Of a stretch of 64,000 nt of DNA, positions 3,192 to 54,281 are shown piece after piece (the first letter of the stretch is position 1; each line of letters begins with the position of its first letter). The position numbers and the translations under genes are program-made. The stretch comes from Plasmopara viticola (lineage: Eukaryota; Oomycota; Peronosporomycetes; Peronosporales; Peronosporaceae), in the NCBI GenBank assembly GCA_001695595.3, contig MBPM02000203.1:1-64000 (forward strand), in the 5' to 3' direction. A model generated the notes under the pieces. It saw only the letters and a program-made list of their open reading frames with translations, was not told where the DNA came from and searched no databases.

Positions 3192-3495
3192 GTTAAAGAG
3201 TGACCGGTTTTCATTCGCTTATAAGCTGCTTCAAGCTTGGGCGAGAGCAAGAATGAGCCAAAAATCGTCCGACAACGCGCAAAGTGCACCCAAGAGGAAT
3301 GTACACCTATCTCCAAATCGTCGCACGAGGGCTACTACCTACTTTCTGATATGTTTCTTTTTTGACTGGATAGCTTTGTTTGTGTTGACAAGTGCTTGTG
3401 CTGAGGGGACAAGTCTATAATTGTACAACTCAGGCCAGATGATATTAAAGTATTGAGTGTAGCTATCGCAAAAGTAAGCAAACAAATATATGAGC

Positions 3496-4932
3496 ACCCG
3501 GCGCACGGCAAAGATGCTCCATCCAATCCCAGCGTCTCCCGTTCGGCTTTCGTTCGTTGAACGGATTGACCTGGGACTTCGGAGACTAGTCCGCGTCGTT
3601 CATCCTCGACGACGTCAGCGCCGAAGCCGGCGCTGAAGACCCAAAGCCTGAAGGAAAGCACAGAGCGAAGCCTCTCCAACCTGCGGCGATTCATTAGCAA
3701 CATCGGCCGTTCGTGCTGACGTCGTTTCTCCTCACTGCGCAACGCCATCGAGCTGAAGAGAAGAGGGAAGGTCAGCTCCAGCCAGGAGCTCAGCTTGTCC
3801 GCAAACTGTGGCACACCATCTCGCGAAGAAGGTGATCGATATCGATGACGTCTTGTCGATCTCGACTTATCAAGAATCTACAGGTGGAATCTCGCACCCG
3901 CAGCCCAAATTCCAAGCCGACAGCGATGCTGATTGCTCACAGACGGCTTCACGACCGTCGTGAACAAAAAAAGCGCACACGGGGAGAGTCGACTTCTCCA
4001 GCATGCTGACGAAGCATGTACCACGCCGCTCGACGGAATCGCGACGAAGAACTACTTTGCGGAGCTCCAGACGATGTCCGCGTCGTTCCAAAGCTTCGAC
4101 GCGGCCATCAACCCGAAGTACGGTAAACGGCACCAGATCGTCCCGCCGAAGTGAGATGCCGGAGGCGCTCAGATGTCGAAAGAGGCCGCTTTTTTCGTGG
4201 AGAACGCCACACCAAGATTAGAACACAGCGAAAGCGTCGTTGTTGTCGAAGTGCGGAGTCGATGGTGAACGACGAGAACACTGCGCTGCTCAACACACTT
4301 CCCGACCTTCTTGCGGCAGCAGACGGCAAGGTGGACGGCACTGTAAAGATCATGGAGAACGCTTCAAACCCGGACCACGTGATGAAGAAACTTGTTGAGT
4401 CGGGTCCGGCGTTCAACAGCGCGATGTCCCTCAAGATGGCGGAGAATGGCAACGAGATCGCTGAACTCGCCCAACTGCACATGATCAAGCGTGTGCTGAG
4501 CGCGACGACGCCGAACGCGACGTCACGTTCAGTGCGAAGTGGAAGAAGCTGACAGGGACGGCTGTGCCCTCAAAACGTCAAGAGCTGCTCAAAGCGTGCG
4601 CGAAGTGGTGGACGGCGACGGACCAAGTTCGTGAGCTGTCCCGGTTCACTAAGGCGCTGAGTGTGTTTGAGCTCGCCCTGATATCGGCGGCACCGACAAT
4701 CTTCTTGAGTGATCACTGGATCCAATTCGTCACAGGCGAGCCAGTTCAGTGGATCCCAGCTCATCACGCAAGACTGCTGCACCCAAACACCCTCTTAAAA
4801 CTGCTGCGATCGGACCTTGGTGCTCTCTGCATGGAGCACTGGAGCCGTGTCCAATGGCAGGGCCACCTTCTCGACGAACTTGAGGAGCTGCGAAAGCTTG
4901 AGGGGAGTACCCGGTTGACGAGTCGGTGTTGA
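3496..4932 (+). pseudogene. LINE copy 1 ORF1 remnant
   Basis: Broken plus-strand frames that line up with ORF1 of the better copy at 43759-46335. The stretch near 4040-4150 (KNYFAEL ... RHQIVPPK) matches SNYFDVL ... FQIVPRK there. The stretch near 4290-4480 (LLNTLPDLLAAADGKVDG) matches LLPDRLAAADTMVSG. The stretch at 4564-4932 (WIPAHHARLLHPNTLL) matches WIPAHNRRLLHPNMLL. Several frame changes separate these pieces. ORF1 of LINEs usually encodes the RNA-binding particle protein, but I see no zinc knuckle here, so the role is inferred only from position upstream of the endonuclease. 3496-3930 has no recognisable coding match. Confidence 0.7.
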
Positions 4933-4980
4933 AGCTTCAAGTTGCGGGTGACGGATCGGTGACACTAGTGGCGGGCGGCC

Positions 4981-7361
4981 TTGCCACCCGCTGCTAAGGC
5001 GGATTCGGCTCCACCAACCTGGACAAACGTTGGTGTTCTCACTGTAAACACCAACGGCGTGAAGAAGAACGGCCACCTGTTGATCGAGCATCTGCTCTCC
5101 AGGTACTCGGTATCTTGTCTCCAAGAAACCAAGTTCGCCGACCGCCACCAACTTGACACCTTCCGCTTCCATCTCGAGTCGGCATTCACGCACAAGCTGT
5201 TCGTAAGCGATGACAATGCGCTGCTCGATAGACCAACGCGAGGTCGAGTAACGGCGTCCTGACGCTGCTGCGCTCCGACTTTCCTGGCTTTGACTCAGCT
5301 GCCAATGTTCCCCACCTCACTGTCTCCGGCCGCTACCTTGTCGTGCGTGTGATGGTCGATCTTACTCCCATCTACATACACAATGTGTACGCGCCAGTCG
5401 ACAAGCAAGAGAAACAAGCGTTCTTCTCGAATCTCGCGACAGAAGGGTTCGAAGACGCCGCGATCCACTTTGTCCTTGGCGACTTGAACACTCCGCTTGA
5501 CCCGAGTCTCGACTGCTCCATACCGGACCTCCGCTATGACCCTAGTCGCTCGAGTTGCCTTGACTGGTTGGCGCGACTTGGGGTTGCTGATGCCTGGCGT
5601 ATCCACAACGACTCGAAGCGCGTCTTCACGGGCCCGATGCCCCGCAAGAACCGACTCGACTACGTGCTGCTGTCCGAATTGTTCAGCAACCAATTTTACC
5701 ACGACGCCAAGTACTTTGACCCAAAGCATGCCGGTGATCACTTGGCGCACAGCGTGAGCTTCAAGTCTGGATCCCAACTACATGGCCGAGGGTACTGGAA
5801 GTTTCCACGATACCTTCTCGACTATCCTCAAGTCGTTTTGGCAATTCAGCGTGAAGTTAATGACATCCTCAAGCAGCTTCGGTCGACATCAAAACCCGGG
5901 CAAGACTTGGGAGATGTGGAAGGCGAGCATCAAGGCGCAACTTCAGGGCCTCCAGAAGAAACTTCGAGCACAAGACGCTCAAAGCCATAGAGGAGGCCCG
6001 CATTACGCTTGACCGCGCGGCCGCTCAGTACCAGACGGAGTCGGATGAAGACAACCGCGACGTGTACGAAGCGGCGATGCGTGAGTACAAAGAGACGGTG
6101 ACAAGGTCGAGCCAGTATAGCCAACGCAGCACTTCCAAGCTGCGAACTCCGAAAAGTCGACGAAGCACTTCTTCCGTCCTCTCGACACAAGCCTCCGGCG
6201 CGTCTCCATCGAAGAGGTCGTCACGCCAAATGGAAGTATCTCGACTAATTCGAACGAGATCTACCTCCGGTTCCTCGAACATTGGGGTTCCGAGATGGGG
6301 GACGAAAACAGCCCTGGCGGTAAGGCACTTCCGCCAGACGACGCGCTTCAAAGAAAACTGCTGGACTCTATCATTCGCAAACTGCCTGAGCTCGACCGCA
6401 ACGCACTGGACAGGAGAGTCAGCGCGTCCGACCTCGAGCAGGCGATCAAGCACATGAAGGCGACTTCGTCTCCAGGTATGGACGGCTTGACGGCTGGTTT
6501 CTACCAGGTTGCGCCGGCATTTTTGGTGAGTGTCTCGCGCTGGTGTTTAGAAATTGCCTTGAGCGCGGGAAACTGCTGACATCGCAGCGCAAATCAGCTG
6601 TGGTACTGCTTCACAAGAAAGGCTCTCGTGCCGACCCGGGAAACTACCGCCCGATTGCGCTGATTCCGGTCGACGTCAAGGTGCTGTCAAAGGCGCTCAC
6701 GTTCCGTCTTCAGGCTGTCATTCACAAGCTGATCCACCCGACCAGAAGGGGTTCATTCGCGGCCGCTCATCCACCACCACGTTCGCTTTCTTGCAGATCT
6801 TCAAGACCTCGTGACGAGCCGTGACGAGGAGGCGTACGCGCTGTTGGATTTCCAGAAGGCGTTTGACCGTGTGAATGGGAATACATGTTCAAGCTGCTCA
6901 AGCGCATGGGCATCGGAGACGGCTTTATTCGCTGGGTGAAGCTGCTGTACACCGACCCGCTCGCGAATCTTCTCATCAACGGCGAAGTTCAACCGGCACT
7001 TCAACCGACGCGTGGAGTAAAGCAAGGAGATCCACTCTCCGCGCTTCTTTTCGTTTTGACGATCGAGCCGCTTGGTAACCTGCTCCGATCACACGAGGAG
7101 TATGGCGTGTGCCTAAATGAAGACCACACGGCGACGAGCGTCTTCTTCGCGGACGACTCGACACTCCTTGGTAGCTCAATTGCTAACCTTCGGGCACAGC
7201 TCGATCTCGTCAAAGAGTACTGTCAAGGCTCCGGCGCAAAGCTAAATCTGACCAAGTCGGTGCTGCTGGCCCTGAATCGCGGCCACGAGTGTCCGTCGAT
7301 GCCGGACGTTCAGATCCTCGACCGGCTGGGGTCGGTCAAATACCTTGGTCGTCGCTCGACG
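4981..7361 (+). pseudogene. LINE copy 1 ORF2 remnant (APE endonuclease + reverse transcriptase)
   Basis: Endonuclease motifs appear in order: VNTNG near 5045, QETKF near 5120, HNVYAPVD near 5380, LGDLNTPLD near 5475, RLDYVLL near 5655 and DHLAH near 5740. Reverse-transcriptase motifs follow: SPGMDGLTAGFYQVAP near 6470, LLHKKGSRADPGNYRPI near 6610, LLDFQKAFDRV near 6840, RGVKQGDPLSALLF near 7010 and FFADDSTLL near 7145. At least four frame changes separate them, so no full-length protein can be made. The frame is cut by the right edge of the LINE block just after VKYLG. Confidence 0.88.
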
Positions 7362-14833: not shown

Positions 14834-14905
14834 CGACAGCTGTGAGATTTGAACTCACGCGGGTTACCCCAATAGATTTCTAGTCTATCGCCTTAACCAC
14901 TCGGC
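14834..14905 (-). pseudogene. tRNA-Ser (AGA), 3' part, split by LINE
   Basis: The gene runs normally from its 3' end to cactcggc at 14905 and is then interrupted by LINE 3' sequence. The missing 5' end, preceded by a duplicated ctcggc, resumes at 15495-15509. Confidence 0.9.
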
Positions 14906-15494
14906 AGGTCGGAGACTAGACGGTCGTCGCCAGGGCCCGAAAGGGTGACGGGCGGCCTGAGCCTGACTCTCGATCCAGTCGCTGCGGTAGAGGACCCTGT
15001 GGTCGAGGCGCTGCATAAGGGCTGCGCGTCCAAAGAGTGAGCCTCCACTTCTCCACTTCAGTTTCGGAGACTAGAGGGTCGTTGCCAGGGCTCGAAAGGG
15101 CGACGGGCGGCTCGAGCCCGAATTCTGTTGTGGAGATAGTGGTTGACTGCTCTAAGCGGGCGTGTCTGCAGCGGACCGAGAGCTGGAACACCGGCTTCGC
15201 TTCCCGCAACGACGGACAAGGCTTCGAACTGTACATGGAAGGTCAATACTTTGCTAGGTAGGTCAACTATCACGTCCAAGTGGATATCCGCGAAACCAGC
15301 AGAAACACTGGTCCCGGTGAAGGATTGTGAAATAAAATCAATCACTTCTATCCGGCCGATCAAAGTGCTTGTCACACCAAACGATTAGAAGAAAACCTCA
15401 AGTTAACCTGAAGACAGGTAGTAGATTGTATATTAGTTAAACGACGTAGGCATAGAGAAGTGGAAGTCGTATTAAGTAATACAGACTACTTGAA
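14906..15494 (+). mobile_element. LINE copy 3, 3'-end fragment inserted in tRNA-Ser
   Basis: 589 bp that match the last 0.55 kb of the LINE at 43669-50959, from the final codons of its long frame through the 3' untranslated end (…gactacttgaa). It is a typical 5'-truncated LINE insertion. ctcggc flanks it at 14900-14905 and 15495-15500 and reads as a 6-bp target-site duplication. The 3' junction, ttgaa followed by ctcggccaag, is identical to that of the long copy at 50959/50960. The sequence ggagactagNcggtcg appears twice (near 14911 and 15065), whereas the long copy has it once (near 50530). There is no poly(A) tail. Confidence 0.88.
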
Positions 15495-15833
15495 CTCGGC
15501 CAAGCTGTCGTTAAAGAGTGACCGGTTTTCATTCGCTTATAAGCTGCTTCAAGCTTGGGCGAGAGCAAGAATGAGCCAAAAATCGTCCGACAACGCGCAA
15601 AGTGCACCCAAGAGGAATGTACACCTATCTCCAAATCGTCGCACGAGGGCTACTACCTACTTTCTGATATGTTTCTTTTTTGACTGGATAGCTTTGTTTG
15701 TGTTGACAAGTGCTTGTGCTGAGGGGACAAGTCTATAATTGTACAACTCAGGCCAGATGATATTAAAGTATTGAGTGTAGCTATCGCAAAAGTAAGCAAA
15801 CAAATATATGAGCGAAATTGTAGCACTACCATA

Positions 15834-43224: not shown

Positions 43225-43587
43225 ATTCGGCTCATAGATATTTACACACTTACTAAAATTTGCCATGATGACTTTCTTCAAACCGCCTTTCTTTTGCTGT
43301 TATATTCATCACCTAGTGTTTAATCTTCGCTCTAACTAAAGGCCGTCATATACCCAATGTTCATTTTGAAATAACAGAACGCGCACTTTGATTTGAGTAA
43401 GAAGCAGAAGTAATAATAAATATTGCACCTTTTAAAAGAACAAAACCCTGGTGGCGGACAATTTACTCTGAAAATGTGATATGTAGGATCACGTTGCAAT
43501 TGTTGCACCTTCTTATGCATAACGATATAAAGTTGAGAGATGTAATCGTGAATGACAGCGCTCGAGAAATTATCGAGCACTTTGATT

Positions 43588-43668
43588 CGACAGCTGTGAG
43601 ATTTGAACTCACGCGGGTTACCCCAATAGATTTCTAGTCTATCGCCTTAACCACTCGGCCAAGCTGTC
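43588..43668 (-). tRNA. tRNA-Ser (AGA), at the LINE 5' junction
   Basis: All 81 bases of the gene are present and the next base (43669) is the start of the LINE. The last 15 bases on the plus strand, the 5' end of the tRNA, are one copy of the target-site duplication. The gene keeps its internal promoter but loses its normal 5' flank and TATA-like box. The 3' flank also lacks about 13 bp (gatataaagttgag). Confidence 0.94.
43654..43668. repeat. LINE target-site duplication, left copy
   Basis: ctcggccaagctgtc, repeated exactly at 50960-50974 on the other side of the LINE. It covers the tRNA-Ser 5' acceptor strand and the first half of box A. Confidence 0.9.
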
Positions 43669-43758
43669 ACTTCTCAATTTGCCTCGTCGTGCTCAAGTCG
43701 ACCAAGTCAAATTTCGAAGTACCCAGTTTTTCAAGCACCCAAGCAAGCCTTTCCCCCA

Positions 43759-46335
43759 ATGGACACCGAAGCCAGTTGCCCTTTCTTAGAGTCAGCGCAA
43801 GCTGATTGTGAGATGGGTGAGCTGATTTTACGCCCATCCTCCCCCGCACGTACCCACGACCCATCGCCTATTGAAGGTTCCGCAACCCTACCAAGCGACA
43901 GTTCAGCTGGGTCCGTACCCAACAACCCAGATGCCGGTGGGATTCACGGTTCCATCGAAGCTTCGTTTTATGCACGGACCAGGGTAGAAACGCTGGTTCT
44001 GTGTCGCAAGCCTCGCACGAAACAAGTGATGGCATGGTCGTGCAGCTGCGGGTCACGCCTGCGCACAAGCCACCTGCTTCGCAGGACTTTGTGGAAGATG
44101 TGCAGCCCAACAGCGACACACGCCAATATACGCCACCAACTAACGCCAGTGCTCTCCCGCAAACCGCAGCAACTCGCACGCGTTCGACTGCGAGCGCACC
44201 AACGCGCATGCCAACGCTTCGTGCCCTGCTTCAACGTTCTACGGAGATCCCCGCGACAACGTTGAGGCCCCCGCCCCGCCGCGTGTCGAGATGCCCCGCC
44301 CCAAAATGATGGACATCGAAACCATTGATGCTTTTTATGAAGCCGGAGGCGATTGGAGCCAACTCGCCGCCTCGATTGACCGAGCTCGTCCATACGCGCT
44401 GCCTCGTGCACGCTATGTAATGGTCATCGAGACTGGACACGCCTTCCAGCGCACTGCACCAAGCAAAATCCTCGCGTCGTTGCTGAAAGACCAGGGCACT
44501 GTCGTACAACAGCAAATCGACCAGCAGCAACTAGGTCAGCTGACCAAAGCTCCCGGCGGCAACATCCGCGTCAAGGTGAAGACGAAAGAAGCCTGCCAAA
44601 GTCTTGCTGGCCAGGAAGTCAAGATCCTCGGAGGCAGGTACCGATTCGGCGGGTTTGACATCCTTGCCGACTGCTTCTTTATTGATGTGTCAAGTGTCGA
44701 CAGTGACTTCGATGCTGATCTCATGTTGAAACGCTTCTTCGAGCTCGGTACGCAGCCGATCTACGGCACGTTCCGTGATGTAAATCTGGACGCGGTAATC
44801 ACCACCGCCACTTGGCGTGTGTACTTCCGCTCTAGCCATTGCCCTCCGGAGCTCGTGATAAGTGGTACTGTGTGCGACCAGCTCGTTTTTGCTGGACGCA
44901 TTTACCCAGTACACACGAAAAACGCTCCGTTTCCAACCCAACGCATGTCGTTCGGTCAACGCTCGATCCACGCGCTCGACTTAGCTGGAGACGGTGGTCC
45001 ATCCTCCAACAATAGCCAAAGCAGGCCAGATAAATGCCCGTCGCAGCCATCTTATGCTGCCGTGGTACGTCGTGGCGTGCAGGAAACGTCGCTCAACGAT
45101 CGATCCGTGAAGACTCTGCCACGATCACTGCTATCGTTGCAGCTCCGACTGATACCTTAGAGCCTAGTGAGCTGTCCCTAAGCACTGCAGGCTCCCAAGT
45201 CGTGTCGCCACCAAGCAGCCCGACATCGTCTCCGTTGCTCTTGCTCCCACCACCACCGACTGCCCAATCTGAGTTGGTGCCCAGGGTCGGTGGCAAACGC
45301 AAAGGCAAACGTTCTCGTGCTGATGGAGACTTTGCCAATATGCTGATGAAATCTCGTCCGAAACCTCTCACCGGCGTCACGACAAGCAACTATTTCGACG
45401 TGCTCAGCAATGTCGAGGTCGAGTTTGACTGCTGCCCAGCGACGCTTGATGAGGTCGAGATCCCACGGTTTCAAATTGTGCCACGCAAGGTGCAGGCGCC
45501 GCGCAACCTGACTGACAGCAAAGCAGCCAGTCACTTTCTGACCAAACACCACACCAGAGTGGTGAAAACCAAAGAGCCTACTCCAATCCAAGAGATTGTC
45601 AGCGAGATGGAGGCTACTGAACAGACAGCCGATCTCCAGCTGCTTCCGGATCGCTTGGCCGCCGCCGACACCATGGTGAGTGGCCTTCGCAAGTCGCTTC
45701 GCACGACGAACAACCCCGACACGCTGACGTTCATGGGGTCCGTTAAAGCTCCAATGGCGTTTAACACCGCGCTCTTGCGTGAGATGCGTGAGCTGAGCCC
45801 AGCGTCACCGAGCTGGCCCAGCTTCACATGATCAATCGCATCTTAAGCGCGACCGACACACCGAAACCAACACGTTCGCTCGCAAGTGGGCCAAGTATCT
45901 CGGCACCAAGGTGTCTAAGACGCGTGACAGTGTATTCCGATGCGTTGCCCAGTGGTGGAACAACCCGGACAAACCAACTATTGTGCGTCTAGGGCGCTGT
46001 CCCTCTTTGAGTTGATGTTGATGTGCACAGCGCCCCAGATATTTGAAAAGGACTACCGGCTCCAGCGTCTGACCGGGTGGTCGGTGCCTTGGATACCAGC
46101 GCACAACCGACGTCTTCTTCACCCCAATATGTTGTTGGTCCTGCTTCGCTCCGAGATCGGCACACACTGCTTCAAGATTTGGGAAGCAGTCCAGTGGCAA
46201 GGGGATATACTCGAAGACCTCGAGTACCTTCGTGACTGCGGCCATTACTTCCCAGAGAACGCGGATGTGCTCCAGCTCCAGCAAGTCGACGGTCAGTCTG
46301 TGCTTGTGACTGGACCGCTCGCCTTAAGGTGCTAA
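43759..46335 (+). pseudogene. LINE copy 2 ORF1
   Basis: Coding similarity runs through three frames: 43759-about 43990, 44001-44309, 44291-45160, 45034-45831 and 45940-46335. At least four frame changes are needed to follow it. The best piece (44291-45160, 289 residues) has a compact region with RYRFGGFDILADC and YGTFRDVNLDAVITTATW, followed by a Ser/Pro-rich and basic stretch (GGKRKGKRSR). The last piece has WIPAHNRRLLHPNMLL, shared with the remnant at 4564-4932. No CCHC knuckle or known ORF1 domain is recognised. LINE ORF1 proteins usually bind element RNA and package it with ORF2; that role is assigned here by position only. Conservation between the two LINE copies supports it being a real gene. 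Confidence 0.7.
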
Positions 46336-46336
46336 G

Positions 46337-49300
46337 GTGGTCCCACGCGTGGACGCACCCGAGGTCTCGTGGCAAGAAGTCAGCTTGCTGACCGTTAATA
46401 CCAACGGGATCAAGAAAAACGGACACCTACTAATCGAGAACTTGCTCGAGAAGCACAGCCTCTCTTGCATCCAGGAGACCAAATTCCGCGATTGCCACCA
46501 TCTTGACACCTTCAAATTTAACCTTCAGGCCCGTTTCAAGCACAAGCTATTCGTCAGCGACCCTGGTGCAGTCAGTGCCACACAGACAACACACCGATCT
46601 GGCGGAGTGCTCACTGTGCTTCGCTACGACTTTCCAGGCTTCGATGCGGCCGAAGAGCTTCGCGAGCTGACTGTCCCGGGACGCTATCTAGTTGTTCGAT
46701 TGGTGGTCGTCAGTGCACCTGTGTACATCCACAATGTGTACTCGCCGGTGGACGACCACGAAAAAGCTGTGTTCTTCAACCATCTTCCAGTGGACCGCTT
46801 TGAGGACAATGCAACGCACATAGTCCTCGGCGATTTGAACACGCCGCTGAACCCCAGCCTCGACTCATCCCAGCCACGCTTGCTTGCTCGCCCGGGCCGC
46901 AGCGCTTGTATGAGCTGGCTGAGCCAGCTAGGTGTCGTAGATGCCTGGCGGATCCACCACCAAGACGAGCGCATATACACTGGCCCCCAGCCGAGGCAGA
47001 ACCGACTTGACTATGCTATGTTGTCGGAAGACTTCTGCAACGCGTTGTACGGCGACTCTAAGTACTTTGAGCCCAAAGGTGCTGGTGACCACCTGGCGCA
47101 CACAGTAACCTTGCGCTCGGTGTCTCAACTCCACGGATATGGCTACTGGCGCTTTCCGGAGTATCTTCTTGAGTACTCCGATGTTGTCGATGCCATCTGT
47201 GGTGAAGCCCGACAGGTGCTCGAGAATCTCCAGGCTGCATCGAACCCAGGCAAAGTCTGGGAGCAGTGGAAGAAATTTATGCGGCGCCAGCTACAGGCCC
47301 TCCAACGTAAGCTACGCAGCCAAAATGACGTCGCCATTACAGCCGCACAAATCACGCTAGACCAAGCAGCAATGCGGTACCATAGCAAGCGAGACGCAAC
47401 CTCCCAAGAGGCCTTTCGTGCTGCACTAGACACATACCGCGACTGCGTGACCCGGTCTCGCTGCTACAACCAAGACTCGGCCTTTGACTTTCAAGTTCAG
47501 AAGGCCGAGACGTCTTCCACGTACTTCTTCCGTCCGATCGACCCATCACTCCGACGGGTCAGCATTGAACAAGTTTGGACTCCCAGCGGCGACATCTCGC
47601 AAAACCCAGCGGACATCTCAGCATGCTTTCGGCCCACTGGGGTTGTATCATGGGCGATGCTGCCAATCCTGCCGGACCATTGCCACCCATCAATCCCAGC
47701 AGCCGACGAAAGCTGTTGAACACGATTGACAAGCGTCTAACAACCGATGAACAAGACCGTCTCAACGCCCCAATTTCCGGAGCCAATCTTGCTGACGCGC
47801 TCAAGCATATGAAGACCAACTCCGCGCCTGGCATGGACGCTCTCACAGCTGGCTTCTATCAGGTCGCGCCCGACGTTTTCGGGGAATGTCTGAGCATAGT
47901 GTTCAATTATCAGTTGGCACGAGGTGAGCTCCTCCCTTCCCAGCGCAAGTCGGCTGTGTGCATGTTGCACAAGAAAGGCTCGCGTGACGACCCCGGAAAC
48001 TTTTGGCCGATCTCGCTCATTTGCGTTGACGTGAAGGCGTTATCCAAGATCTTGACCTACCGCCTCCAGCACTGCCTTCCTGAGCTTATACACACCGACC
48101 AGAAGGCGTTCGTCAAGGGTCGGTCTATTCATCATCATGTGCGGTTCATGGCCGATCTGCAAGACCTCACGACTGCACGCGACGAAGAAGCCTACGCTTT
48201 GTTTCTCGATTTCGAGAAGGCGTACGATCGGGTCGACTGGGACTACATGTTTCAAGTGCTCGATCGCATGGGTTGCGGCGGCGCCTTCACCAACTGGGCG
48301 AGGTTGCTTTACACCGCCCCACAAGCACACCTCTTGCTCAACGGTCACATCCAGCCGCCGATTTTCCCCACAAGAGGAGTCAAGCAAGGCGACCCACTCT
48401 CAGCGCTGCTGTTTCTTATGGCTATCGAGCCACTGGGGAACCTGCTCCGACAGCATGAAGAGCATGGTGTTTGCCTCACCGAAGACCACACCGCCACCAG
48501 CGTCTTTTTTGCTGATGACACAACGTTGCTCTCTGGCTCGGTGTCCGGCATCTAGGCACAGCTTGACCTGGTTCAGCTGTACTGCGATGGCTCCGGAGCC
48601 AAGCTCAACTATGCCAAATGCGTGCTTATGCCTCTAAACCGCCGGACAAAACCTCCTTGTTTTCCTGGTGTCAGTTGCTCCAGCGTGGTGAGACGGTCAA
48701 GTTTCTGGGCATCCTGTTTGGTCACGATCCTGTTGAAAACGCCATCATAGAGCTCTTGGACAGGCGATTCTACGAATGGTTTTTCCAATGGTTTCGTCGC
48801 GCTCGCACCTTGCGAGGACGCCTGCTGGTTGCGCTAACAATGGTGCTTTCTCGGTTGTGGCACTACACTGTGCATGTGCCATTCCCGCAGCGGATCGTTA
48901 AGCAGTGGCAGTCCACGCTCAACCGCTTTGTACTTGCACGTCGCTACGAACGCAACGCCAAACACGTCCAGGTGATTCCCAAGGAGTTTCTGTATCAACC
49001 TCGCTCCGACGGTGGTCTGTCAGTACCCAGCATCGAAGCCTCACTCAAGCGTCAAAAGCTCAGCGTGCTGCTCCAGTTCATCGCTGCGTCGACCTCTTCC
49101 CAATCTAACTGGACCACATCAGGAGTCGTGCTTCTGTCGCTTGTGCTGCCCACTTGGGGTCCTCGGCGTCCTCTCGACTATCTTACGGTTAGCCCCATAC
49201 GCCACGGCGCTCTGCTGCGGTGGGATGTGTTGTCACAGTGGTGGCGCCAAGTCTGGCGTCTATGGTATATGACCAAGTGGGAAGTCACATGGCGAGACCT

Positions 49301-50726
49301 CGCCCCCCTCGCCCGCCTCGGCTATGTGCTGAACCAACCGATTTGGTTCCACGCCGACGCTGATTTCCAGTTTGAACTCGCCGCCCGTGTTAGCAGCTCA
49401 AAAGTACAGCGGCGTAGTCTTTGCATGGTTGCCGAGCCCAAGCGCAGCTACCGCCAGCACACCGCAACAACTTTCAAACTTCGGTGTCTGGCTGACTTCT
49501 TGAACGCTGGCGGTGCATGGCCGGATGCTGATGCGTTTGCGCGCGGACACATTGACTACCGGCTCACGTCAGTCCCTGTGTACCAGCAGTACCAGTGGCT
49601 CCGACGCCTGCATCACGAAGCCACACAAGTCTTCGAGCGACTACGGGATCTATGCGCCAATACACCGCTCCCGCCTCCAGGCGTGGCCTGGGTGTGTCCC
49701 ACTGCACCATACGTTGGCGTGCGCGTGGGGGAACGCGTCTGTGTTGCGCCCTTAGTACCACGTTCCCAGTTGCTCCTGCTTGTGTGGAAGATCCCCACGC
49801 CCACGAAGCCTCACCCAATCCAGCTGCACGATGAGCACGCCACAACAATCGACATCAAAGTTTTCGTGGAACAGTCCAAGCGTTTACGTCGGCTGCTGCT
49901 TCCTGTATACGAAGATCTGCAATTCCGACTCGCCTTCCGTCTGTTGCCAGTGCGTTCACGATTCTCTTTTCTGCGCGAGGCGCATCCTGGCATCATCTAC
50001 TGCGTACGCAGCGGATGCAACGCAGTGGAAACAGAGCGGCACCTGTTCTTTGAGTGCGTTCTACCAGCCGAGCTATGGCCAGTTCTGTTTCGGGACTGGT
50101 CAGCTTTCTTTGTCACCACACCGACATGGCTCGACATCGCCCTTGGTCGCCCACCAGCCCTTACATCCGCTTGGCACGACCATGCCGCCGTGGTGCATGA
50201 TCTGTGGCAGATCACACGTTGCATCACGCTCCACTTGCTGTGGACAGTGCGCAATGACGGATTGTTCCGCCAGCGTGAGCTTTTGCCTCTGGTGCCTGCG
50301 CTCCGGGTCGTGTACACCACACTTAATGCCCACGTGCGTGCATGCAAACGTAGGGTGTACGACGAAGACCAGCAAGCATCGCTCCATTCTGTGCTGACCC
50401 GGCTCCGATGCTCTCGCTCGCCTGAGCCTGACTCTCGATCCAAATGCTGCGGTAGAGGACCCTGTGGTCGAGGCGCTGCATCAGGGCTGCGCGTCCAAAG
50501 AGTGAGCCTCCACTTCTCCACTTCAGTTTCGGAGACTAGAGGGTCGTCGCCAGGGCCCGAAAGGGCGACGGGCGGCTCGGGCCCGAATTCTGTTGTGGAG
50601 ATAGTGGTTGACCGCTCTAAGCCGGCGTGTCTGCAGCGGACCGAGAGCTGGAACACCGGCTTCGCTTCCCGCAACGACGGACAAGGCTTCGAACTGTACA
50701 TGGGAGGTCAATACTTTGCTAGGTAG
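46337..50726 (+). pseudogene. LINE copy 2 ORF2: APE endonuclease, reverse transcriptase, Cys-His domain
   Basis: The product would nick target DNA and copy element RNA onto the nick. The first frame (46337-47719, GTG-start region, 460 residues) has the exonuclease-endonuclease-phosphatase signatures VNTNG (20-24), QETKF (46-50), YIHNVYSP (130-137), LGDLNTP (164-170), RLDY (223-226) and DHLAH (251-255). The frame then shifts. 47575-48555 has the RT: PGMDALTAGFYQ, LDFEKAYDRVDW (motif A), RGVKQGDPLSALLF (B) and FFADDTTLL (C). A TAG at 48553 and another frame shift near 48660 follow. 48618-50726 is the thumb and C-terminal part with the Cys-His motif YCVRSGC…HLFFEC. Two frameshifts plus one stop break an otherwise complete protein. 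The final 100 residues overlap sequence reused in the 14906-15494 fragment. Confidence 0.9.
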
Positions 50727-50959
50727 GTCAACTATCACATCCAAGTGGATATCCGCGAAACCAACAGAAATACTGGTCCCGGTGAAGGATTGTGAATTAA
50801 AATCAATCAGTTCTATCCGGCCGTTCAAAGTGCTTGTCACACCAAACGATTAGAAGAAAACCTCAAGTTAACCTGTAGACAGGTAGTAGATTGTATATTA
50901 GTTGAACGACGTAGGCATAGAGAAGTGGAAGTCGTATTAAGTAATACAGACTACTTGAA

Positions 50960-50974
50960 CTCGGCCAAGCTGTC
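50960..50974. repeat. LINE target-site duplication, right copy
   Basis: ctcggccaagctgtc, identical to 43654-43668. It is followed directly by the normal tRNA-Ser 5' flank (gttaaagagtgaccgg). Confidence 0.9.
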
Positions 50975-52672: not shown

Positions 52673-52675
52673 CGT

Positions 52676-52756
52676 GGCAGCTTGGCTGAGTTGTTAAGGC
52701 GATAGACTAGAAATCTATTGGGGTAACCCGCGTGAGTTCAAATCTCACAGCTGTCG
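52676..52756 (+). pseudogene. tRNA-Ser (AGA), inverted copy with box A changes
   Basis: Anticodon arm, variable arm and T arm are consensus. The 5' part reads GGCAGCTTGGCTGAGTTGTT, so the acceptor has A2 to G, the D stem C12 to U and the conserved GG of the D loop becomes UG. Box A is damaged, so transcription and folding are doubtful. Confidence 0.75.
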
Positions 52757-53133
52757 AATCAAAGTGCTCGATAATTTCTCGAGCGCTGTCATTCACGATT
52801 ACATCTCTTAACTTTATAAATATGCTTTTATATCTTTAAGCATAAGAAGGTGCAACAATTGCAACGTGATCATACATATCACATTTTCAGAATAAATTGT
52901 CCGCCACCAGGGTTTTGTTCTTTTAAAAGGCGCAATATTTATTATTACTTCTGCTTCTTACTCAAATCAAAGTGCGCGTTCTGTTATTTCAAAATGAACA
53001 TTGGGTATATGACGGCCTTTAGTTAACGGGAAAATTAAACACTAGGTGATGAATATAACAGCAAAAGAAAGGCGGTTTGAAGACAGTCATCATGGCACAT
53101 TTTAGTAAGTGTGTAAATATCTATGAGCCGAAT

Positions 53134-53206
53134 GTCGGTGTCGTCTAGTGGTTAGGACTTGAGCTTAATAGGCTCAAGATCGAGGGCTCGATCCCCTCCT
53201 CTGATA
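53134..53206 (+). pseudogene. tRNA-Val-derived copy, anticodon now AAT
   Basis: Loop reads TTAATAG, so the anticodon is AAT, which would read isoleucine codon AUU. T54 is changed to C (box B GGCTCGATCCC) and G26 to T, and the acceptor has C69 to U. The damaged box B and the array context favour a decaying tRNA-Val rather than a working tRNA-Ile. Confidence 0.75.
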
Positions 53207-53530
53207 TATGGTAGTGCTACAATTTCGCTCATATATTTGTTTGCTTACTTTTGCGATAGCTACACTCAATACTTTAATATCATCTGGCCTGAGTTGTACA
53301 ATTATTGACTTGTCCCCTCAGCACAAGCACTTGTCAACACAAACAAAGCTATCTAGTCAAAAAAGAAACATATCAGAAAGTAGGTAGTAGCCCTCGTGCG
53401 ACGATTTGGAAATAGGTGTACATTCCTCTTGGGTGCACTTTGCGCGTTGTCGGACGATTTTTGGCTCATTCTTGCTCTCGCCCAAGCTTGAAGCAGCTTA
53501 TAAGCGAATGAAAACCGGTCACTCTTTAAC

Positions 53531-53611
53531 GACAGCTTGGCCGAGTGGTTAAGGCGATAGACTAGAAATCTATTGGGGTACCCCGCGTGAGTTCAAATCT
53601 CACAGCTGTCG
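53531..53611 (+). tRNA. tRNA-Ser (AGA), inverted
   Basis: Consensus except one base in the variable arm (GGGGTACCCC for GGGGTAACCC), which keeps or strengthens the arm. Confidence 0.9.
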
Positions 53612-53988
53612 AATCAGAGTGCTCGATAATTTCTCGAGCGCTGTCATTCACGATTACATCTCTCAACTTTATAAATATGCATTTATATCGTTATGCATAA
53701 GAAGGTGCAACAATTGCAACGTGATCCTACATATCACATTTTCAGAGTAAATTGTCCGCCACCAGGGTTTTGTTTTTTTAAAAGGTGCAATATTTATTAT
53801 TACTTCTGCTTCTTACTCAAATCAAAGTGCGCATTCTGTTATTTCAAAATGAACATTGGGTATGTTTCGGCCTTCAGTTAGAGCGAAGATAAAACACTAG
53901 GTGATGAATATAACAGCAAAAGAAAGGCGGTTTGAAGACAGTCATTATGGCAAATTTTAGTAAGTGTGTGAATATCTATGAGCCGAAT

Positions 53989-54061
53989 GTCGGTGTCGTC
54001 TAGTGGTTAGGACGTGAGCTTAACACGCTCAAGATCGAGGGTTCGATCTCCTCCTCCGATA
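53989..54061 (+). tRNA. tRNA-Val (AAC), inverted
   Basis: Consensus except C61 to U in the T stem, giving a G-U pair. This is the last tRNA gene before the telomere-type repeats. Confidence 0.9.
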
Positions 54062-54281
54062 TATGGTAGTGCTACAATTTCGCTCATATATTTGTTTGCT
54101 TACTTTTGCGATATCTACACTCAATACTTAATATCATCTGGCCTGAGTTGTACAATTAAAGACTTGTCCCCTCAGCACAAGCACTTGTCAACACAAACAA
54201 AGCTATCCAGTCAAAAAAGAACATATCAGAAAGTAGGTAGTAGCCCTCGTGCGACGATATGGAAATAGGTGTACATTCCTC

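What the first reader, a model, noticed from the sequence alone, without database searches (positions are those of the whole stretch)
43654..50974. LINE family that targets box A of the tRNA-Ser(AGA) gene
Two independent insertions (43669-50959 and 14906-15494) end with the same LINE base joined to the same target base (ttgaa then ctcggccaag), inside box A of tRNA-Ser. Their 5' junctions and target duplications differ (15 bp versus 6 bp), so they are separate events and not one duplicated insertion. A fixed 3' junction with a variable second nick is the signature of target-primed reverse transcription by a site-specific endonuclease. LINEs specific for rRNA, snRNA and tRNA genes are known in other lineages (R1/R2, the Tx1-clade Mutsu, Keno and Dewa, and TRE elements near tRNA genes in Dictyostelium). 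One landing inside tRNA-Ser in an oomycete-like genome may be undescribed.
Basis: partly seen in the sequence, partly recalled or inferred. Interest (0 to 1): 0.88.

Follow-up and report, generated by a model that had tools for sequence, protein, structure and literature searches.

The report
LINEs that rebuild the tRNAs they hit
In this genome, probably that of an oomycete, two related groups of LINE jumping genes sit at one fixed point inside 21 kinds of tRNA gene and, because the first 15 letters of the gene are duplicated on insertion, a complete tRNA gene still stands beside most copies whose front end is intact; the elements likely make the cut themselves, and would thus be able to spread through essential genes without destroying them.

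Summary
The LINE at 43669-50959 and the truncated copy at 14906-15494 end at the same base of tRNA-Ser box A, with 15 and 6 bp duplications. Genome-wide, 40 of 40 scored 3' ends of this family join the same position of Ser and Leu tRNA genes (7 anticodons at full-length copies). Sister families (RT 62-66% identical) join the homologous position of class I tRNA genes: 30 of 32 sampled sites; the other 2 show no LINE sequence. The cut lies after tRNA nucleotide 15. The 5' junction is fixed as well: 56 of 65 LINE 5' ends abut nucleotide 1 of a complete tRNA gene, because the duplication equals nucleotides 1-15. Insertion thus rebuilds its target, and LINE-15 bp-LINE tandems suggest that rebuilt genes are hit again. 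None of the 72 3' ends examined lies in tRNA-Val or tRNA-His, which lack the motif although Val genes are interleaved, so direct DNA recognition by the LINE's APE endonuclease is likelier than Pol III guidance. Site-specific LINEs are known, some in tRNA genes; I found no description of an APE/L1-type clade in box A that regenerates the gene. Nicking, target-primed synthesis and expression of rebuilt tRNAs are untested.

The parts
43587..43668 (-). tRNA-Ser(AGA) gene rebuilt at the LINE's 5' end, head to head with it
   Evidence: ARAGORN; Rfam tRNA model 61.9 bits at 43588-43668; its 82 nt occur 44 times on the minus strand of the window, itself included
43654..43668 (.). left target-site duplication = tRNA nt 15 to 1 (15 bp)
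   Evidence: sequence
43669..50959 (+). LINE, full length apart from a roughly 0.5 kb 3'-UTR stretch that most other long copies carry
43669..43683 (+). 5'-terminal 15-mer ACTTCTCAATTTGCC, identical in class I and class II families
   Evidence: 74 exact genome places against 1 for the reversed control; alignment
43759..46335 (+). ORF1 region, frame broken in this copy; open for 862 aa in four other copies
46337..47719 (+). ORF2 N-terminal part with APE-type endonuclease (about 46373-47116)
   Evidence: Pfam PF03372; human LINE-1 ORF2p alignment; AlphaFold model and Foldseek
47575..48555 (+). ORF2 reverse transcriptase part, FADD motif; the frame ends with a stop at 48553-48555
   Evidence: Pfam PF00078; LINE-1 ORF2p among the best PDB matches
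48618..50726 (+). ORF2 C-terminal part; Pfam finds no family here, so no RNase H or restriction-like endonuclease
50420..50959 (+). 3' region of the LINE, ending aatacagactacttgaa
50960..50974 (.). right target-site duplication, remnant of tRNA nt 15 to 1
14906..15494 (+). 5'-truncated copy in another tRNA-Ser gene, same 3' base; this tRNA gene is not rebuilt
14900..14905 (.). left 6 bp duplication of the short copy
15495..15500 (.). right 6 bp duplication of the short copy

Best explanation
A clade of L1-type LINEs in this genome sits at one fixed point in box A of tRNA genes, after nucleotide 15, with nucleotides 1-15 duplicated, so that a complete tRNA gene stands at the 5' end of most copies with an intact 5' end; the cut is likely made by the elements' own APE endonuclease reading the DNA, and copying likely proceeds by target-primed reverse transcription. 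Shown: the fixed 3' junction, the 5' junction at tRNA nt 1, duplications of about 15-17 bp in both lineages, the complete tRNA genes, two lineages divided by target (class II GSCCGAG for Ser and Leu, class I GCTCAG-like for ten other amino acids), LINE-15 bp-LINE tandems, and no insertion in tRNA-Val or tRNA-His among 72 examined 3' ends. Inferred: ORF2's endonuclease nicks the tRNA-sense strand after G15; the 3'-OH primes synthesis from the LINE RNA 3' end (ACTTGAA or ACTTTAA); the second strand is cut 15 bp away, at the tRNA's first nucleotide, so repair yields an intact gene with the LINE as its new 5' leader; the rebuilt gene stays functional and can be hit again.
For: Class II 3' ends: 40 of 40 scored at box A. 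Class I 3' ends: 12 of 12 loci chosen from RT places (in L069 the contig ends after 8-9 target bases) and 18 of 20 sites found by a 14-base LINE tail pattern; the 2 misses, L143 and L152, show no LINE tail in the 30 bases upstream. 5' ends: the terminal 15-mer has 74 places (reversed control 1), all read. Of 65 that continue as LINE, 56 abut a complete tRNA within 3 nt: 39 of 47 class I, and 17 of 18 class II (3 of 4 fetched plus 14 of 14 already held). Of the 9 that continue otherwise, 0 do. Duplications, up to one mismatch: 16-18 bp (shared A included) in 15 of 20 class II copies with both ends; 15-16 bp in 13 of 17 class I copies with both ends. 21 anticodons: 7, 14. APE fold and motifs; L1-type RT. 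Tandems: L063, L076/L121. Val (CTAG at nt 12-15) and His (ATAG) lack the motif; none of the 72 3' ends examined lies in them, although Val alternates with Ser (49 and 46 exact 20-base gene starts in the window).
Against: No biochemistry and no expression data. 9 of 65 LINE 5' ends do not abut a complete tRNA: L087, L124 and L099 look like decayed tRNAs, L112, L113 and L121 follow another LINE tail, L119 and L129 join elsewhere inside a tRNA gene, and L107 has no tRNA. By script 5 of 20 class II and 4 of 17 class I copies gave no full duplication; in one class I copy (C328, L135/L160) the two ends lie in different tRNA genes. One class I copy (L145) has five extra bases before box A. The 5'-truncated copy at 14906 does not rebuild its tRNA. 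An old copy on C9 shows no box A junction. Only 12 of 105 RT places below 90% identity were read for their 3' side, and only 40 of 108 candidates were scored. Copies within one array may be duplicates of each other.
Confidence: 0.82

Rival explanations
1. The Pol III machinery (TFIIIC or TFIIIB bound to box A) guides the LINE, as for TRE5 and Ty3, and the endonuclease adds little specificity.
For: The targets found are Pol III genes and the site is box A. TRE5 ORF1 protein binds TFIIIB subunits (PMC5911963, passages).
Against: Val and His genes, transcribed by the same machinery and interleaved or adjacent, hold none of the 72 3' ends examined. The junction is fixed to the base, and the two lineages split by nucleotide 13 (G or C), which fits reading of DNA.
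Confidence: 0.1
2. The 5' junction varied at insertion and only tRNA-restoring insertions survived selection.
For: Two LINE 5' ends lie elsewhere in tRNA genes (L119, L129).
Against: In an array of about 46 tRNA-Ser genes a broken copy should be tolerated, as the 14906 copy shows, yet 17 of 18 class II 5' ends with the terminal 15-mer abut nucleotide 1.
Confidence: 0.1
3. Target choice is helped by base pairing between LINE RNA that runs on into the 15-nt remnant (antisense to tRNA nt 1-15) and the nicked strand.
For: The box A 3' ends read are followed by such a remnant; shared box A letters would pair even between different tRNAs.
Against: One family sits in tRNAs whose nt 1-7 differ (Ser, Leu), and transcript ends are unknown.
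Confidence: 0.15
4. One insertion was copied round the genome by array expansion or gene conversion.
For: Several copies lie in the same Leu(TAG) arrays on C96 and C40 with near-identical flanks; one class I copy on C328 has ends in two different tRNA genes, as recombination would give.
Against: 21 anticodons, many contigs and distinct native flanks.
Confidence: 0.02

Closest known systems
Dictyostelid TRE5, TRE3 and NLTR-A LINEs
   Same: LINEs tied to tRNA genes (APE stated for the TREs); NLTR-A lies 2-6 bp upstream of the mature tRNA sequence, so the tRNA stays whole (PMC5006619 passages; PMC5911963 passages)
   Different: TRE5 lies about 50 bp upstream and TRE3 downstream; NLTR-A carries RNase H, which Pfam does not find here; a box A nick with duplication of tRNA nt 1-15 was not in the passages I read
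NeSL/R2-type LINEs in tRNA genes (NeSL-1_TV tRNA-Pro, LIN15_SM tRNA-Arg, LIN25_SM tRNA-Glu)
   Same: LINEs specific for tRNA genes (PMC4640811 passages)
   Different: relatives of restriction-like-endonuclease lineages; the elements here have an APE endonuclease and an L1-like RT
Dewa, Keno, Mutsu (Tx1 clade by recall)
   Same: LINEs aimed at small RNA genes; Dewa is tied to tRNA-Leu (PMC3706591 passages); Tx1-clade elements carry APE endonucleases (PMC4640811 passages)
   Different: Dewa lies in the spacer of tRNA-Leu, not inside the gene; RT kinship not tested
Dada DNA transposons (Dada-tS, -tY, -tK)
   Same: insert at nt 8-13 of tRNA genes reading TGGCCG (Ser, also present in Leu) or TAGCTC, the letters just before the cut found here (PMC8869645 passages)
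   Different: DNA transposons with a DDE transposase and 6-7 bp duplications (PMC3706591 passages); a parallel choice of site, not kinship
Utopia LINEs of oomycetes
   Same: small-RNA-gene targeting in oomycetes, tandem arrays of element and target (PMC4640811 passages)
   Different: U2 snRNA target that is left disrupted; restriction-like endonuclease

Membership tests
L1-group (APE-type) non-LTR retrotransposon | APE endonuclease N-terminal to a non-LTR reverse transcriptase, after a separate ORF1 | tested here: met
   Pfam PF03372 and PF00078; LINE-1 ORF2p matches in sequence and fold; ORF1 and ORF2 frames in several copies
L1-group (APE-type) non-LTR retrotransposon | RT nearer to L1 than to R2 | tested here: met
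   133-135 bits to LINE-1 ORF2p chains (one equal hit, 8c8j, is named only RNA-directed DNA polymerase) against 74 bits at best to R2-type proteins
Site-specific LINE | same target base at the 3' junction in independent copies | tested here: met
   40 of 40 class II; 12 of 12 and 18 of 20 class I
Tx1 clade | RT groups with Tx1, Keno, Mutsu and Dewa | not tested
   no named reference sequences were at hand
Dewa | inserts in the tRNA-Leu spacer | tested here: not met
   insertions lie inside the gene after nt 15
TRE5/TRE3 | inserts outside the mature tRNA sequence, about 50 bp upstream or further downstream | tested here: not met
   junctions at nt 15/16 and nt 1
NLTR-A | RNase H domain downstream of RT | tested here: not met
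   no Pfam match in the 702-aa C-terminal part of the window copy
R2/NeSL/Utopia | C-terminal restriction-like endonuclease, no APE | tested here: not met
   APE domain present, no other nuclease matched
Dada | DDE transposase and 6-7 bp duplications | tested here: not met
   APE plus RT; duplications of about 15-17 bp
Target-primed reverse transcription | nick at the 3' junction primes cDNA synthesis | not testable with these tools
   only the junction signature is seen: fixed 3' end, 5' truncation in some copies

The most novel reading that the evidence does not exclude
A radiation of self-sparing tRNA LINEs: two sister lineages have divided nearly the whole tRNA gene set between them by reading box A (nucleotide 13 G or C), and the 15-bp spacing of their two cuts matches the distance from box A to the tRNA's first base, so each full-length insertion rebuilds its target, supplies its new Pol III leader, and leaves the site open to unlimited reinsertion.
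Probability: 0.55. Interest if true: 0.92.

Novelty: new variant of a known kind. Interest (0 to 1): 0.85.

Why it matters
Site-specific LINEs are usually thought to survive by hiding in genes with many spare copies. Here the geometry of the insertion itself appears to spare the gene, which would open every tRNA family, small ones included, as a harbour, and would explain how one clade came to occupy 21 anticodons. It resembles in outcome the bacterial elements that restore the tRNA gene they enter (recalled), but by a LINE route. It makes testable questions of how an APE endonuclease reads box A, how the second cut is placed, and whether a LINE end can serve as a tRNA leader. Compact APE endonucleases that distinguish class I from class II tRNA genes would also be natural material for studies of targeted insertion into sites that tolerate it.

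Tried and rejected
Considered and rejected: duplication of one insertion as the general cause (21 anticodons, distinct flanks); chance (controls); a host-guided mechanism as sole cause (Val and His not hit among 72 ends). Looked for and not found: relatives in viral contigs (one scan, none); Rfam families inside the LINE (only the two flanking tRNAs); an unusually stable 3'-UTR hairpin (z -1.5, unremarkable); a shared motif in native tRNA 5' flanks that the LINE 5' end might mimic (by eye, none clear). A chimaera suspected on C211 proved to be a separate 5'-truncated class II copy between array sequences. The RT trees place class II with Globisporangium splendens proteins and class I with a larger oomycete group, but without named Tx1 references they do not settle the clade.
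Full report
What was checked. The window is contig C203 (1-64000) of a 92.9 Mb, 358-contig assembly. ARAGORN finds 97 tRNA genes in it, nearly all alternating tRNA-Ser(AGA) and tRNA-Val(AAC), like the dimeric 850-nt repeat described in Phytophthora infestans (PMC9584435, passages). The nearest named proteins to the LINE are from oomycetes: Globisporangium splendens at 75-76% identity, then Plasmopara, Peronospora, Lagenidium and Aphanomyces.

The observation. Both junctions are as stated. The long copy has a 15-bp duplication, ctcggccaagctgtc, on each side; the short copy has 6 bp, ctcggc. Both LINE copies end ttgaa at the same target base.

The same family elsewhere. The 3' end was searched in the whole genome (40 of 108 candidates scored; the query included 31 bp of target; the two window copies are among the 40). 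All 40 continue with (C/T)TCGG(C/G)C, the antisense of the class II box A start GSCCGAG. A LINE-only query gave 40 main places, 36 of them the same. Of the other four, one is a decayed copy (C9) without a box A junction and three (C7 and two on C37) share only an internal stretch. Long copies among the 20 regions read lie in tRNA-Leu(TAG), Leu(CAG), Leu(CAA), Ser(AGA), Ser(GCT), Ser(CGA) and Ser(TGA).

The sister families. A search with the RT gave 123 places: 18 at 92% identity or more (one copy gives two of them) and 105 at 52-84%, some of which are old copies of the window family. I read the 3' side of 12 of these, all at 62-66% identity. All 12 end at the antisense of a class I box A (CTGAGCTA and near variants), in Ala, Tyr, Arg, Ile, Phe, Met, Lys or Thr genes; in one (L069) the contig ends within the target. 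A 14-base LINE-only tail pattern found 27 places (reversed control 1), of which 4 were already held, 20 were fetched and 3 left unread. 18 of the 20 continue with class I box A (one, L145, after five extra bases; one, L144, with a changed letter), and 2 (L143, L152) have no LINE tail upstream. In tRNA numbering (recalled) the cut is after G15 in both lineages; they differ at nt 13, G for class II and C for class I.

The 5' junction. The LINE 5'-terminal 15-mer is identical in both lineages, although much of the next few hundred bases is not. It occurs 74 times, against 1 for the reversed control. I read all 74: 60 fetched and 14 already held. Nine continue with other letters and none of these abuts a tRNA. 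The other 65 continue as LINE (judged on the next five letters for the 51 fetched ones), and 56 of them abut a complete tRNA gene within 3 nt of its first base: 39 of 47 class I and 17 of 18 class II. The 9 exceptions are listed under evidence against. The class I tRNAs cover 14 anticodons.

The duplication. In 15 of 20 class II copies with both ends the script finds a 16-18 bp duplication, shared A included and one mismatch allowed. Of the five failures, L049 lacks the first 12 LINE bases beside the usual target letters, L057 and L067 differ from a full match by small changes, and L064 and L065 are decayed. For class I, 17 copies could be paired end to end (7.1-8.8 kb apart): 13 have a 15-16 bp duplication; of the other four, one ends at a contig end, one has the five extra bases, one (Ala) has a longer run of C at its 5' junction, and one (C328) has its two ends in different tRNA genes. 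Since the cut lies after nt 15 and the duplication spans nt 1-15, such an insertion leaves a complete tRNA gene at the LINE's 5' end and a 15-bp remnant at its 3' end. In the window the rebuilt gene is identical to 43 others, and the joined host flanks match a neighbouring array unit (558 of 568 bases, 96% identity, 15 gaps). The Rfam tRNA model accepts the rebuilt gene at 61.9 bits.

Reinsertion. L063 shows tRNA - LINE - 15 bp - LINE, and L076/L121 shows a class I LINE tail, 15 bp of target, then another LINE 5' end. This is what insertion into an already rebuilt gene would leave. A 547-bp element sharing only the LINE tail (73% identity) also sits in Leu(TAG) genes with a complete tRNA at its 5' side (L051, L057); it is likely a non-autonomous passenger.

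Specificity. tRNA-Val alternates with tRNA-Ser in the window (49 and 46 exact 20-base gene starts), and tRNA-His lies beside tRNA-Ala. Val reads CTAG and His ATAG at nt 12-15. Of the 72 3' ends examined (40 class II, 12 and 20 class I), 70 are at box A of other tRNA genes and none is in Val or His. This natural control favours reading of DNA letters over guidance by the Pol III machinery alone.

The proteins. ORF2 has an APE-type endonuclease and an RT. The endonuclease aligns with human LINE-1 ORF2p, including the ET, GDxNTPL and DH motifs (their catalytic role is recalled), and an AlphaFold model (mean pLDDT 78.5) finds LINE-1 structures first (ranks 1-6). The RT matches LINE-1 ORF2p at 133-135 bits and R2-type proteins at 74 at best. 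In the RT tree the window element groups with four proteins, three of them from Globisporangium splendens (100/96), apart from a 42-row oomycete clade (100/100) that holds Globisporangium, Plasmopara and Peronospora proteins. The one class I RT that I could read (C176) falls beside members of that clade in a quick second tree, where its nearest node is weakly supported. If inherited vertically, both lineages are older than the split from Globisporangium; whether the relatives there also target tRNA genes was not tested.

What is known. LINEs in tRNA genes are reported among relatives of NeSL, with restriction-like endonucleases (PMC4640811); Dewa lies in the tRNA-Leu spacer (PMC3706591); dictyostelid TRE and NLTR elements lie near tRNA genes, NLTR-A only 2-6 bp upstream (PMC5006619, PMC5911963); Dada transposons use nt 8-13 of tRNA genes (PMC8869645). 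For all of these I read passages only. Ten searches of the held library listed no paper whose title, abstract start or passages read describe APE-type LINEs in box A or LINE insertion that rebuilds a tRNA gene; most subscription journals are missing from the library and I had no Repbase, so an unnoticed Repbase entry is possible.

Verdict. The finding is real, and broader and stranger than first read. What is shown is anatomy; the nick, the priming and the function of the rebuilt genes are inference.

Noticed in passing
window 3494-7350: Second, decayed LINE fragment whose RT falls in the 42-row oomycete clade of the tree (WIN2nd); no 3' end is seen, and the neighbouring array unit is eroded.
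   Followed up: partly
L051:253-799, L057:752-1297: A 547-bp short element shares only the LINE tail (73% identity) and sits at the same point of tRNA-Leu(TAG) genes, likely a non-autonomous passenger; nine similar tails lie on C96 and C40.
   Followed up: partly
C328: L135 (5' end) and L160 (3' end): A class I LINE with its 5' end in a tRNA-Cys gene and its 3' end at box A of a different tRNA gene, perhaps a recombinant.
   Followed up: no
window 50420-50959 and 14906-14956: The 3' UTR of most long copies holds an extra stretch of roughly 0.5 kb, with a repeated GC-rich block, that the window's long copy lacks.
   Followed up: no
window 52675-54062: The tRNA array switches strand near 52.6 kb, and one unit carries tRNA-Ile(AAT) where Val is expected.
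   Followed up: no
L085, L091, L092, L101: The 15-mer ACTTCTCAATTTGCC also follows a different repeated sequence (ending atctcaatc or a near variant), unrelated to tRNA; identity unknown.
   Followed up: no
5' ends of class I, class II and the 547-bp element: A second short motif, CAAGTCGAC, is kept near the 5' ends (about nt 26-34 in the LINEs), perhaps a promoter or packaging signal.
   Followed up: no
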